Shown in pieces: positions 11,972 through 46,228 of a stretch of 64,000 nt of DNA (the first letter of the stretch is position 1; the number at the start of each line of letters is the position of its first letter). The notes beneath the pieces were generated by a model. That model was not told the origin of the DNA, made no database searches, and worked only from the letters and a program-made list of their open reading frames with translations. Origin of the DNA: Capitulum mitella (lineage: Eukaryota; Arthropoda; Thecostraca; Pollicipedomorpha; Pollicipedidae); assembly GCA_030062745.1 (NCBI GenBank), contig CP099842.1:22973822-23037821 (forward strand), in the 5' to 3' direction. The translations under genes and the position numbers were made by a program.

Positions 11972-14900
11972 CTAACCAGAGGCCCCGGGCAAAAACATTT
12001 CGGGCGCATCCTGTTCGCCAGGCCCTATCGCTCCTCCGAACAGGTCAGGATCGTCGAAATCATCCTTCTTGTCCTTCTTCTTTCCAAACCGGAATTTCTT
12101 CCCCTTGCCGCCACCCGATCCTCCTGCACCGGCTCCACCCTTTCCTCCTGCTCCACCTGCCATAGCCCCAGCTCCACCACCCATACCACCTGCCCCACCA
12201 CCCATTCCGCCGGCTCCACCGCCCATTCCACCAGCCCCGCCGCCCATTCCACCTGCCCCACCGCCCATCCCACCTGCCCCACCGCCAATTCCACCAGCCC
12301 CACCACCCATGCCGCCTGCTCCACCACCCATTCCGCCAGCTCCACCACCCATTCCGCCAGCTCCACCACCCATTCCGCCTGCTCCGCCACCCATACCACC
12401 TGCCCCACCCCCAACGCCACCTGCCCCACCGCCCATTCCATCAGCTCCACTACCCATGCCTCCTGCCGCTCCACCAAGGCCACCAGCACCGCCATCCATA
12501 CCACCAGCTTCGCCGCCCATTCCGTCCTCATCCTCGCCCATTCCGTCGCCGTCACCATCTCCTTCATCACCGTCCTGGCCTTCACCCTTTCTTTTCTTCA
12601 TCACTAAGAATATAATGAGACAGCAAAGAAGAAGGAGAAGGGGAATAAGGATCCCTGCGACTAGGAGGCCGGTTCCACTAGATTTTTTCTCCTTTTCCTT
12701 ACTGGCTTCACCACCTCCTCCTGGTACAATAACACCAGCCTCTGTAGTCGTTTTGCCACCTCCATAAACGCCAACGCCACCGCCAAGTCCACTAGAAGTC
12801 TTTGTGCCACCGACGCCGTGTCCTCCATCACCAGTACCAGTATAACCACCCCCTGGTTTACCACCCGGAAGTCCATTCGTCGTTCCTCCATGAGGCCCTG
12901 GGGGCCCAGGGGGACCAGGAGGTCCGCCAGAATGGCCATGCCCTGAACCACCACCCTTAGTAGTGCCACCACCAGATGTCCCATGACCGCCATGACCGCC
13001 GGGGCCTGTGTGACTGCCATCCCCAGGCCGAGTGGTCCCTTCGCCTTTCCCTGGTCCCTCACCACCACCAGTTGTCCCGCCGGGAGGACCCGGTGGCCGA
13101 CCCCCAGGAGGTACAGGAGGACCATATGTTCTAGGTGGCGGTGTTGGCTTGTTGTGTCTGGGTGTTGTTGTTGTAAACCCAGGCGGACGTGTTCCCGTAG
13201 GAGGCGGCTTCGGTCCCATAGATGACGGCAATGTCCTGGTTACCGGCTTGCGTGAAGTGGTCGTCGGCGGAGAGGGTAGGGGCGTCGTAGTAGTGCTGCG
13301 TGTCCATAGCGCGGTCCATGGAGTCGGCCCAATGACGGGACCAAATGTAAACGTCGTGCCATTACATTTGCCATAGTGCTTCGAGATGAAAAACAGACAC
13401 GCTATGACTACGTCATGCTCAGTGGGATCAATTGGATGACCGCCAGGCGGTGTGGGTTGGGTGGTAGATGCCCGTGTAGGCACAGTGCTGAACACATCGA
13501 CTGGAGTCGTTGTTTTCGGTTTTCTTGTCGTTGTTGTCGTGGTTGTGGTCGTGGTCGTCGTGGTCGTCGTTGGTGGTGCTGTGGACTTAGTGGTAGTAGT
13601 CGTAGTTGTTGACGTAGTGGTGGTTGGCACAGACCATATTGGCGGAGCAAAAGTTGTGGTTGCAACTGTGCGATGAGTGGTGGTGGTCGTTGTTGTTGTC
13701 GTTGTTGTAACAATAGGGGGTAGCGAATAGACTGTTGTTGGAGTTTGGGTCGCCGGCGTGACGTAAATATGCGGCCAAGGGGCTTCGGAAGTGCGCGGTT
13801 TTGTTGGTGAATGAATAATAGGCCTCACTGTAGTTTTATGTGTTTTGGTTGTCTTCGGTGGTGGCTTTACAGGCGGCTTCGCCGTCGGTGGGGGTGGAAG
13901 AACTATTGTTGGAGGAGGATGTGTAAACCGAGTCGTCCTCGGTGTGGTGGTAACGGTTGAAACTGTCGTGGTGGTGGTGGTTGTAGTCGTCGTCGTAGTT
14001 GTCGGCGTCGTCGTGGTTGTGGTTGTCGTTGTTGTGGTTGTAGTTGTAGTAGTCGTAGTGGTTGTGGTGGTAGTAGTTGTTTCCTTTTTGTGAGTTGCTT
14101 TTTTAGTAGTGGTTTGCGTTGTTGTAGTCGTGGTGGTGGTCGTTGTTGTGGTTGTGGTGGTCTTTTTATGCGTGGGAGCAACGGTTGTAGTAGTTGGTAA
14201 CGTGTGAGCAGTGGTAGCCCGTTTTTTCGTGGTCGTGGTTACGTGGGTTCGGCAGTACTCTCTTTCGTAGGAATGCTTTGTGGGGAAGAACGGTGAGCAG
14301 TAATTTTCCAGTACACACCAGGGATCCGCACTGCCCCGTGCAGTCATTTTTAGCTTGAAAGGTCCGTTCATTAGCATCCTCTTTGGGTCCATCCTCCAGT
14401 TGTACTGCAGGTAGAGACTTGCCTGTTGGGATTTGGCTCGTAGCTCTGTCTGTTCCAAGTACAGCGAAGTGTAGCAGTATAGCCTTCTCTTAAACATTGT
14501 ATCTTTGGAGGTTCCGTCCCACTCGGACTCGTAGAATGGATCTCCATTTTGATCGAAGTATGCAGTCACCAGGCCAAAACAATCGTAGCCCTGCTGCACA
14601 ACCAGCTTTTCGTATTTGGGGTCGGCCATCGTCTGTCCAGTTTTCGTACTGAGATATTCACGTCCGTTGATGTGCAAAACTGGACGTACGCACGGTCTGC
14701 TACCCTTTAACAAAATGAGAATGAATCGATAACCGACATCGTCACCAAACACCTGCTGGCGTGTGTACTGATATCCTCCCACTGCAATCTTTTCGTCATC
14801 TCGATCGGCAAAGTATTTGCTTTCCTCTCCTGCCAGCGACACCGTGCGTGACGTGAGATCAAGTTTATCCATGGTTATCACGGAATGCCGTGTCTTGGGA

Positions 14901-15958
14901 CGCACCGCGTCTCTATCGCCATCACTAAAATCGTAGTCGCCCTTTACTTTTCCCTCGCCGTATATGACGTCGTACGTCGAGCAGTGGACGTCGTTTAAAA
15001 ATCGACTGGAGCATACGCATCTGCAACCTCTCATGAAGCCATCTGATGGACATGAGCTCCAGTGGTTGAATCGAGAATATGATTCTCCTCCCATCCCACA
15101 GTCAGTCCTTTCTTTTGCATCACAGTGGTGCCGCCAACCAATGATTGCTTCATCATGGTGAGTGAATCGCACTTCATAATTTTTTGTGTACTTCGAGGCG
15201 TCGATCCAGGGTTGCCAAATGGCAAACTTTGTGACATAGATAGCTCTTGGATCTCGTGGGTAGGATCTATCGTTTGTTCCTGGGTGAAACACTGATTTGA
15301 AGGTATAGTAAGGGAGACCCTTTGAGCCAGTCTCCTTGTCCATGAGTTCATGACTTCCAAAATCCTCTTCAGTTTCCTTGCGACCAAGTAAATTTTGCAG
15401 ATTACATGCGTATAGTCCGGTTGCAGAGTTCTTATCCAAGCTTATGGTGACAAGAGGATTCACGCTGACGTATCCATCTCTGTCCGGTCGGAAGGGTGTG
15501 GGAGAGTAACCCATTAGCAGGAACAACATAGACACTAGATGATTCCAGGAACACTCGAAATCGTCACCAACGATGAAGATATATGGCCTCCAGTGACCAT
15601 ACATTCCATTTGGGAAAAATGGCAAAGAAATGTCACATAGCCCAGGTCTTGCTGAAGAATCTGATCTTGTGTTTTTAAAGCAAACCGTTACCCTGAATTG
15701 AGCTGTGTCACAGGTACTGCCGTAGGCGTCAATTTCCCTGTATTGTACACACGATTTCTTTCCAAGGTCTTCTAGAAACTTCTTCACTAACAGTTTTCTC
15801 TGTGTTGAAGGGGGATCCTTGCTGTCGAAATAATACAAGACGACCTTGTCGTCTCCAAGAGGAAAGTCAACCAACTGCTTCAGCTCGGACTTATGTAAAA
15901 AAAGGCACAGAAGAAGAAGTGCCGCAAACCAATCGTAAACTTTCATCTTTGAAATCAT
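11972..15958 (-). CDS. Astacin-like pseudoprotease with mucin stalk, single-pass membrane protein
   Basis: A single 1328-codon frame. The start is the first ATG after an in-frame stop at 15995-15997. Residues 1-25 form a signal peptide (core FAALLLLCLFL). Residues 38-330 look like an astacin (M12A) domain: a YYFD strand, C70, and RPDRDGYVSVN at 157-167. The zinc site HExxHxxGxxH has become SMLFLLMGYSP (143-153) and the Met-turn SxMHY is SVFHP (222-226), so all His ligands, the catalytic Glu, the Met and the Tyr are gone. C279-C326 is a Cys-rich patch and 345-560 an unidentified domain. Residues 573-835 are Thr-rich with near-pure Thr runs, a likely O-glycosylated stalk. Residues 890-1085 are Pro/Gly-rich. 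A transmembrane helix lies at about 1097-1119, followed by KKRK. The cytoplasmic tail has Gly/Met/Ala repeats (1145-1274), then a Lys-rich and an Asp-rich end. A non-catalytic surface role is inferred. No intron is needed; a pyrimidine tract just upstream could hide one in the 5' UTR. Confidence 0.85.
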   Translation of the reverse strand: MISKMKVYDWFAALLLLCLFLHKSELKQLVDFPLGDDKVVLYYFDSKDPPSTQRKLLVKKFLEDLGKKSCVQYREIDAYGSTCDTAQFRVTVCFKNTRSDSSARPGLCDISLPFFPNGMYGHWRPYIFIVGDDFECSWNHLVSMLFLLMGYSPTPFRPDRDGYVSVNPLVTISLDKNSATGLYACNLQNLLGRKETEEDFGSHELMDKETGSKGLPYYTFKSVFHPGTNDRSYPRDPRAIYVTKFAIWQPWIDASKYTKNYEVRFTHHDEAIIGWRHHCDAKERTDCGMGGESYSRFNHWSSCPSDGFMRGCRCVCSSRFLNDVHCSTYDVIYGEGKVKGDYDFSDGDRDAVRPKTRHSVITMDKLDLTSRTVSLAGEESKYFADRDDEKIAVGGYQYTRQQVFGDDVGYRFILILLKGSRPCVRPVLHINGREYLSTKTGQTMADPKYEKLVVQQGYDCFGLVTAYFDQNGDPFYESEWDGTSKDTMFKRRLYCYTSLYLEQTELRAKSQQASLYLQYNWRMDPKRMLMNGPFKLKMTARGSADPWCVLENYCSPFFPTKHSYEREYCRTHVTTTTKKRATTAHTLPTTTTVAPTHKKTTTTTTTTTTTTTTTQTTTKKATHKKETTTTTTTTTTTTTTTTTTTTTTTTTPTTTTTTTTTTTTTVSTVTTTPRTTRFTHPPPTIVLPPPPTAKPPVKPPPKTTKTHKTTVRPIIHSPTKPRTSEAPWPHIYVTPATQTPTTVYSLPPIVTTTTTTTTTTTHRTVATTTFAPPIWSVPTTTTSTTTTTTTKSTAPPTTTTTTTTTTTTTTTRKPKTTTPVDVFSTVPTRASTTQPTPPGGHPIDPTEHDVVIACLFFISKHYGKCNGTTFTFGPVIGPTPWTALWTRSTTTTPLPSPPTTTSRKPVTRTLPSSMGPKPPPTGTRPPGFTTTTPRHNKPTPPPRTYGPPVPPGGRPPGPPGGTTGGGEGPGKGEGTTRPGDGSHTGPGGHGGHGTSGGGTTKGGGSGHGHSGGPPGPPGPPGPHGGTTNGLPGGKPGGGYTGTGDGGHGVGGTKTSSGLGGGVGVYGGGKTTTEAGVIVPGGGGEASKEKEKKSSGTGLLVAGILIPLLLLLCCLIIFLVMKKRKGEGQDGDEGDGDGDGMGEDEDGMGGEAGGMDGGAGGLGGAAGGMGSGADGMGGGAGGVGGGAGGMGGGAGGMGGGAGGMGGGAGGMGGGAGGMGGGAGGIGGGAGGMGGGAGGMGGGAGGMGGGAGGMGGGAGGMGGGAGAMAGGAGGKGGAGAGGSGGGKGKKFRFGKKKDKKDDFDDPDLFGGAIGPGEQDAPEMFLPGASG
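12140..12525 (-). repeat. 21-bp coding minisatellite (Gly-Gly-Met-Gly-Gly-Gly-Ala)
   Basis: About 18 heptapeptide units, mostly GGMGGGA with Met sometimes replaced by Val, Ile, Ala, Leu or Lys, make up most of the cytoplasmic tail of the astacin-like protein. Synonymous differences between units argue against very recent expansion. The array also creates a Pro-rich frame on the plus strand (12069-12767), which is an artefact. Confidence 0.9.
13500..14240 (-). repeat. Threonine-codon tracts encoding the mucin-like stalk
   Basis: Long tracts of mixed ACN codons (seen on the plus strand as gtn repeats) encode Thr runs of up to about 26 residues, interrupted by His-Lys-Lys, Pro-rich and Arg/Lys-containing spacers. 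All four Thr codons are used, so this is not a simple trinucleotide microsatellite. Confidence 0.85.
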
Positions 15959-45544: not shown

Positions 45545-45614
45545 GCGAAGATGTGACGCCGCTGACTCCGATGCTGACATCTCGTTGTAGAGTATTCCAG
45601 TGCATCTCAGATAT

Positions 45615-46228
45615 CTTTCTTCTTCTTCTTCGGGTCTTCGGAAGGCGTTTGACGCGGTTGTCAGGGACATTCTTTTGAAGAAACTCGAACAATATGGGAT
45701 AAGAAATGAATCATTTGAAATAATCCAATCGTACTTGTCAAACAGAAAACAATGTGTTCGCATACGAAATTCCTTGACTAATTACATAGATGTTAGTACA
45801 GAGATTCCTCAGCGGTCTATTCTTGGCCCTGTTCTTTTCACCATATACATGAATTATCCTCCTAACATGAACTGCGAAATGACTTGTTACTCGTATGCCG
45901 ATGACACTGTCTTAATTTTCAAACATAAAAATCCTGAATATTTACAAAACATTATACACGAATCATTGACATCCGTGTCAAATTTGTTCAGAGCAAATTT
46001 CATTTCGATTAATGTCGATAAACATTTACTTAGCAATATTATTATTGCCCCACAGAATTTCAGTTGAAGGCATACATAAATAACAAGTGGATTCAAGAAA
46101 GTGATGAAATAAAGGACCTTGAGATTCTAATTCATAACAATTTAAAGTTCTCTAGTTATATAGTGAAAAATGAGAAGTTCTTTTCTCGAAGACGAGAAGG
46201 ATACTTGAAATTGTGTTGTCTGATTTGA
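45615..46228 (+). pseudogene. Jockey/CR1-like LINE reverse-transcriptase fragment
   Basis: A 5'-truncated ORF2 fragment. In order: LRKAFDAVVRDILLKKLEQYGI, cut here to its ends as RKAFDAV and LLKKLEQYGI, then IQSYLSNRKQCV, the IPQRSILGPVLF block (usually VPQGSILGPLLF), the catalytic YSYADDT (about 45886-45906), and FISINVDK. A frameshift or stop at 46066 is followed in another frame by NNKWIQESDEIKDLEILIHN and NLKFSSYI, the usual region after the active site. The aspartates of YADD remain, but PQG is PQR and the frame is broken, so it is inactive. The endonuclease half and 3' tail are missing. Confidence 0.85.

What the first reader, a model, noticed from the sequence alone, without database searches (positions are those of the whole stretch)
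11972..15958. Astacin fold converted to a catalytically dead, mucin-stalked membrane protein
The astacin hallmark RPDRDGYVSVN is kept, but every His ligand and the Glu of HExxHxxGxxH are replaced (SMLFLLMGYSP, residues 143-153), and the Met-turn SxMHY is SVFHP. Only the structural Gly and the family-specific RxDRDxYV remain. The rest of the chain (Thr stalk, transmembrane helix, Gly-rich tail) is not a standard astacin architecture (EGF/CUB/MAM). This looks like a pseudoprotease reused as a surface scaffold or decoy.
Basis: partly seen in the sequence, partly recalled or inferred. Interest (0 to 1): 0.85.

Follow-up and report, generated by a model that had tools for sequence, protein, structure and literature searches.

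The report
Dead membrane astacin with mucin stalk
An arthropod gene, probably from a barnacle, encodes a cell-surface protein whose protease head has lost its whole zinc site; it is one of several such dead relatives in a family of membrane-anchored proteases, so the family may have been reused for something other than cutting proteins.

Summary
Window 11972-15958 (-) is an intact 1328-codon ORF. Its head is a very divergent astacin: HExxHxxGxxH reads SMLFLLMGYSP, the Met-turn SVFHP, and no HExxH occurs in the chain. Pfam and PDB searches miss it. Its own genome settles ancestry: a profile of ten intact membrane astacins matches it (25.9 bits; best scored shuffle 5.3), 13 of 15 conserved Cys columns are kept, and trees place it in a membrane-astacin clade (98/99, 100/99). 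It is not alone: of 22 membrane astacins in the tree, 13 keep the site, 8 have lost it, 1 lacks only the Glu; one dead relative lies about 15 kb away. Stalk and tail codons show constraint. Best reading: surface pseudo-astacins acting as binding heads, like ADAM pseudopeptidases. Function untested; fold not modelled. New variant of a known kind.

The parts
11972..15958 (-). whole ORF, 1328 aa plus stop, single exon as read; host genome place C4:22985793-22989779 (-), computed from the window's place
15878..15958 (-). signal peptide as judged by eye (residues 1-27), directly followed by the first astacin strand; no prodomain seen
   Evidence: sequence; alignment with paralogues that have one
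15125..15877 (-). pseudo-astacin domain (residues 28-278)
15500..15532 (-). destroyed zinc site SMLFLLMGYSP (143-153) in place of HExxHxxGxxH
15458..15490 (-). retained RPDRDGYVSVN (157-167)
15281..15295 (-). altered Met-turn SVFHP (222-226)
14981..15124 (-). EGF-like module (residues 279-326), Cys pattern as in intact paralogues
14249..14968 (-). second extracellular domain (331-570), shared with the membrane astacins; no Pfam family here or in this part of the six paralogues scanned, and only a chance-level PDB match for the family profile
13109..14239 (-). Thr/Pro mucin-like stalk (574-950), 164 Thr in 377 residues
12677..13108 (-). Gly/Pro-rich membrane-proximal region (951-1094)
12602..12667 (-). 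transmembrane helix (about 1098-1119) followed by KKRK: type I topology inferred
11975..12601 (-). Gly-rich tail (1120-1328), cytoplasmic by inference
12140..12517 (-). 18 seven-residue units in the tail, 15 of them close to GGGAGGM
   Evidence: (list printed before the script stopped with an error)

Best explanation
The gene encodes a type I membrane pseudo-astacin. It descends from a family of membrane-anchored astacins (signal, prodomain, astacin, EGF-like module, second domain, TM, mostly acidic tail) that still has many intact members in the same genome. In this copy the zinc ligands, catalytic Glu and Met-turn Met are gone and no prodomain is visible, while most of the Cys scaffold, the EGF-like module, the second domain and the TM are kept; a long, presumably O-glycosylated Thr/Pro stalk and a Gly-repeat tail have been added. 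Shown: ancestry by sequence, loss of the site, architecture, codon-level constraint on stalk and tail. Inferred: it cannot hydrolyse peptides, sits at the cell surface, and works as a stalked binding head, either for a ligand or substrate shared with its active paralogues (competitor, co-receptor) or as a recognition or adhesion receptor of its own. By analogy with ADAM pseudopeptidases the interaction surface need not be the old cleft.
For: Ancestry: in the 477-Mb host genome the search with the ectodomain returned 4 matches: itself, two intact membrane astacins (E 0.0115, 0.0288) and another dead member, L034 (E 1); the search with L034 returned this gene (E 1.86) beside L025 and L060. A profile of 10 intact members, built without this protein, scores 25.9 bits (E 3.9e-6 for a search size of 20,000 that I set), shuffles at most 5.3. 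hhalign: 91%, E 1.3e-7, 437 columns (no shuffle control). 13 of 15 conserved Cys columns kept, among them Cys 83 and 93, which the aligned members share and crayfish astacin lacks. Clade support 98/99 (33 rows) and 100/99 (23 rows). The family is astacin: the 5 intact members scanned hit PF01400 at 4.6e-27 to 4.5e-34, and the profile of A1 (12 rows, this protein and L034 among them) hits PDB astacins, best 4.6e-24. Not plain decay: no stop in 1328 codons on a branch of 2.82 or 4.06 changes per column; in 15 tail units the third codon position varies (minority fraction 0.400), positions 1 and 2 hardly (0.010, 0.029); stalk Thr codons are 52, 42, 37, 33. Repeated pattern: 8 zinc-site-dead members, of which this one, L059, L060, L065 and L071 show a TM.
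Against: No Pfam hit but a sub-threshold DUF3377 match at the TM (E 0.26), no PDB hit better than E 0.19, no NCBIfam hit. The dead relative L034 also has no Pfam hit. The N-terminal half of the head aligns weakly (1.4 bits) and hhalign places the site differently. The AlphaFold run without an alignment is unusable (mean pLDDT 34.7), so the fold is not shown. Codon constraint was measured on stalk and tail, not on the head. No expression, orthologue or binding data. Its place inside the clade is unresolved; the tool warns that its join with L034 may be false, as long branches meet there.
Confidence: 0.62

Rival explanations
1. Gamete-surface recognition protein: the dead, fast-evolving members act in sperm-egg or sperm-fluid recognition, as dead ADAMs do in mammalian sperm.
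For: End branches of the 8 dead members 1.2-2.86, against 0.09-0.82 for 11 of the 13 intact membrane members (the other two 1.53 and 2.04); repeat-rich stalk; ADAM pseudopeptidases of sperm (PMC11266112, passages seen); sperm-surface astacins of an ascidian (PMC11673157, abstract start in a listing).
Against: No expression data; fast evolution also follows from relaxed constraint.
Confidence: 0.2
2. Decoy or dominant-negative regulator: the dead head still binds substrates or natural inhibitors of the active membrane astacins and so tunes their activity.
For: Paralogues with an intact site and the same architecture coexist in the genome.
Against: Residues around the site and the Met-turn have changed beyond the zinc ligands, and this protein is only 17-22% identical to the other rows of A1, so a shared substrate cleft is doubtful.
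Confidence: 0.25
3. Relic: a dying gene, kept open by chance, with no function.
For: Extreme divergence; a frameshifted paralogue exists (L072).
Against: Open over 1328 codons; mostly synonymous differences among tail units (344 to 68) and mixed Thr codons; conserved Cys scaffold.
Confidence: 0.05
4. Not an astacin: the RPDRD match is convergence.
For: No direct Pfam or PDB hit.
Against: Profile score, Cys pattern, EGF-like module, second domain, TM and tree agree.
Confidence: 0.03

Closest known systems
Astacin family M12A (crayfish astacin, hatching enzymes, meprins, BMP1/tolloid)
   Same: Ancestry of the head; RPDRD motif; Cys scaffold; an EGF-like module behind the protease domain, as in some members (recalled)
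   Different: All zinc ligands, catalytic Glu and Met-turn Met lost; no prodomain seen; own second domain; mucin-like stalk and Gly-repeat tail
ADAM pseudopeptidases (M12B: ADAM2, 7, 11, 18, 22, 23, 29, 32; unc-71)
   Same: Type I membrane metzincins with dead sites beside active paralogues, used as receptors or in sperm (PMC11266112, passages seen)
   Different: Another metzincin family; ADAMs have a disintegrin domain and per that review typically keep the Met-turn, which is changed here
Meprins
   Same: Membrane-bound astacins with an EGF-like domain and TM (PMC9848320 passage; PMC4545420 abstract start in a listing)
   Different: Active; carry MAM and MATH domains, which Pfam did not report here or in the six paralogues scanned

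Membership tests
Astacin (M12A) by descent | sequence homology to M12A domains | tested here: met
   through intact paralogues; no direct Pfam hit
Astacin (M12A) as an active peptidase | HExxHxxGxxH zinc site | tested here: not met
   SMLFLLMGYSP; no HExxH in the chain
Astacin (M12A) as an active peptidase | Met-turn SxMHY | tested here: not met
   SVFHP
Astacin (M12A) as an active peptidase | prodomain that keeps the enzyme latent | tested here: inconclusive
   signal peptide runs straight into the first astacin strand; an unseen 5' exon is not excluded
Astacin fold | two-lobed metzincin fold with Cys42-Cys198 and Cys64-Cys84 bridges (numbers recalled) | tested here: inconclusive
   Cys columns mostly kept; model unusable, mean pLDDT 34.7
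Membrane-astacin family of this genome | astacin, EGF-like module, second domain with conserved Cys, TM | tested here: met
ADAM (M12B) | reprolysin-type domain and disintegrin domain | tested here: not met
   no Pfam match to either in this protein; some intact paralogues touch reprolysin models below the cut-off, far weaker than Astacin
Pseudopeptidase (functional sense) | no catalysis by the protein | not testable with these tools
   needs a biochemical assay

The most novel reading that the evidence does not exclude
An arthropod lineage, probably barnacles, has evolved a whole class of membrane-anchored pseudo-astacins, perhaps by several separate losses of the zinc site, that serves as a cell-surface recognition system: an M12A counterpart of the ADAM pseudopeptidases, with a second domain that Pfam does not recognise.
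Probability: 0.4. Interest if true: 0.75.

Novelty: new variant of a known kind. Interest (0 to 1): 0.56.

Why it matters
Dead membrane metzincins were known to me from the ADAM branch, where they act in sperm and at synapses. A review of inactive metallopeptidases (PMC11266112) lists ADAMs and unc-71 under M12 and uses the word astacin once (passages only). A set of dead, membrane-tethered astacins beside intact sisters in one genome would be a second origin of the same trick, with natural pairs for asking what a protease fold does once catalysis is gone. The unnamed second domain is a further lead.

Tried and rejected
Tick origin, my first guess, was dropped: the host genome has 16 contigs and 477 Mb and 150 matches to PF00379, a family that I recall as arthropod cuticle. 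This fits a barnacle such as Capitulum mitella (16 chromosomes, longest 45.43 Mb, PMC8416341 passages; C1 here is 45.52 Mb; not all contig lengths were seen). No tool names the species.

A HExxH lying elsewhere in the domain: none. A relative in viral contigs: none confirmed; the metagenome contigs and genome contigs collections were not searched for it. Meaningful Pfam, NCBIfam or PDB hits of the protein alone: none. AlphaFold without an alignment: useless, so I made no fold search. A clade of this protein with L059 and L065, suggested by position and by a similar TM helix with two or three Cys: not rejected (p-AU 0.31) but not shown. A single origin of all dead members: not settled; the tree needs 3 changes for the 8 dead rows, while starred branches force only 1.
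Full report
What is there. The finding's coordinates give one open reading frame on the minus strand, 1328 codons. From the N-terminus: a signal peptide (by eye); a divergent astacin head (28-278); an EGF-like module (279-326); a second extracellular domain (331-570); a Thr/Pro stalk with 164 Thr in 377 residues; a Gly/Pro region; one hydrophobic peak (mean hydropathy 3.22) followed by KKRK; and a Gly-rich tail with 18 seven-residue units. A pyrimidine tract and AG just before the ATG leave room for a 5' exon, probably untranslated since the ATG opens a signal-like stretch.

Is the head an astacin? Alone it is invisible to Pfam and to the PDB (best chance match E 0.19). The host genome helps. 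PF01400 gives 52 matches there, this gene not among them. Ten of the loci read (L018, L021-L025, L027-L030) are single open frames with leader, prodomain region, astacin, EGF-like module, second domain and TM. The search with the ectodomain returned 4 matches at E up to 10: itself, two of this group (E 0.0115, 0.0288) and L034 (E 1). L034 as query returned itself, L025's place (0.0166), L060's place (0.126) and this gene (1.86). A profile of the ten intact members, without the query, scored it 25.9 bits, nearly all over residues 156-320. Of 5000 shuffles 2154 were scored, the best at 5.3 bits; the reversed sequence got -0.5. hhalign: probability 91%, E 1.3e-7, 437 columns, without a shuffle control. 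Of 15 columns with Cys in at least 8 of 10 intact members, 13 are Cys here; Cys 108 and 185 lie near the other two. The profile of A1 (12 rows, this protein and L034 included) hits 17 PDB astacin sequences at 1.6e-16 or better, an EGF-bearing protein at 0.033 over the EGF part, and only a chance-level chain (0.17) over the second domain.

The site. In alignment A1 the stretch from C136 to RPDRD has no gap against intact members, and S143, M144, L147 and P153 replace His, Glu, His and His; Gly150 stays; the Met-turn Met is Phe. One search agrees. Against this, hhalign opened a gap there. No HExxH exists in the chain, so the loss does not depend on the alignment. The AlphaFold run without an alignment failed as evidence (mean pLDDT 34.7; 286 of 306 residues below 50). 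It did draw helices at residues 52-66 and 138-150, where astacin has its two main helices (position recalled), but at low confidence.

A family of dead heads. Searches with L034, L029 and L059 brought in more members. The motif table has 34 rows that I chose from the loci read; my trimming cut L014 short of the site and it was left out of the trees, although its frame has an intact motif. In the 33-row tree the membrane clade of 22 rows holds 13 with HExxHxxGxxH, 8 with the zinc site destroyed (this protein, L034, L059, L060, L065, L068, L069, L071; L060 and L069 keep the third His) and L066 with only the Glu replaced (HMMVHALGLMH). L070 (only an EGF and second-domain part) and L072 (frameshifted) were not counted, and some further matches (for example C6:4979550, C8:20603913, C11:9584651) were not read, so the numbers are those of a subset. 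Clade support with this protein inside: 98/99 and 100/99 (23 rows, ten fewer than: seven with long end branches and the three HLLGH rows). L059 and L065 pair with support (98/94, 98/97). The place of the window protein inside the clade is not resolved, and the tool warns that its join with L034 may be false. L059 (C4:22969053-22970456, minus strand) lies about 15 kb from this gene on the same strand. L059, L060, L065, L066 and L071 show a hydrophobic helix and acid residues behind it; L066 also has a shorter Thr/Pro stretch. The frames of L034, L068 and L069 end before a TM, perhaps at introns. Whether other dead members lack a prodomain was not settled, as several frames have no clear start.

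Is it alive? Between 15 tail units third codon positions vary (mean minority fraction 0.400), first and second hardly (0.010, 0.029); pairwise codon differences are 344 synonymous to 68 not. Thr codons in the stalk are ACA 52, ACC 42, ACG 37, ACT 33; of six Thr runs of 7 or more, five use all four codons and one uses three, and of 80 neighbouring pairs 25 are identical. So the repeats look old and kept as protein. The head was not tested in this way; no orthologue or transcript was available.

Host. 150 matches to PF00379 (627 candidates, 150 scored), 16 contigs, 477 Mb. Capitulum mitella has 16 chromosomes, the longest 45.43 Mb and the shortest 19.66 Mb (PMC8416341, passages). Barnacle is my inference.

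In print. Searches of the held library for astacin with: tick and 'catalytically inactive' (3 papers listed of 3), pseudoprotease or HExxHxxGxxH (any two of the three terms, 15 listed of 125), Rhipicephalus and paralog (6 of 6), barnacle (9 of 9), pseudoenzyme (3 of 3), terms on inactive membrane forms (any four of six, 6 of 6), non-peptidase homolog (7 of 7); and six phrases on inactive astacins (any two, 1 of 1). By these listings none describes membrane pseudo-astacins, but 110 papers were not listed and most papers were seen as listings only. The review PMC11266112 lists ADAMs and unc-71 under M12 (12 of 58 places shown); PMC9848320 on astacins does not hold the word 'inactive' in its main text (passages).

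How it may work. Shown: ancestry by sequence, dead site, architecture, codon constraint on stalk and tail. Inferred: surface location, O-glycosylated stalk, no catalysis, binding role. I hold a binding head the likeliest, with decoy towards active sisters and gamete recognition as the main specific versions.

Noticed in passing
L019, L020, L026 (host genome C4:17.85 Mb, C5:27.33 Mb, C7:1.58 Mb): A separate astacin subgroup with HLLGHVIGLVH or HLLGHVLGLPH: three His kept, catalytic Glu replaced by Leu, Met-turn Met kept; another C-terminal architecture. Possibly zinc-binding but inactive.
   Followed up: partly
L066 (host genome C10:18656432-18657010): Membrane astacin with HMMVHALGLMH: only the catalytic Glu replaced (Met), with a Thr/Pro-rich stretch before the TM.
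   Followed up: partly
L050 (host genome C4:21753855-21754517): HExxH intact but the family motif RPDRD reads RPAAR.
   Followed up: no
L072 (host genome C13:16857500-16858900): Membrane-astacin copy whose frame is shifted: a decayed gene or an assembly error. Left as it is.
   Followed up: no
window 14249-14968 (residues 331-570) and paralogues: Second extracellular domain shared by the membrane astacins, without a Pfam family in the proteins scanned and with only a chance-level PDB match.
   Followed up: partly
window 45600-46064 (+): Reverse transcriptase fragment (RVT_1, E 1.4e-14).
   Followed up: no
host genome C9:23.4-23.6 Mb, C10:28.6-28.7 Mb, C13:17.7-17.9 Mb: Dense arrays of PF00379 (chitin-binding, cuticle) matches.
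   Followed up: no
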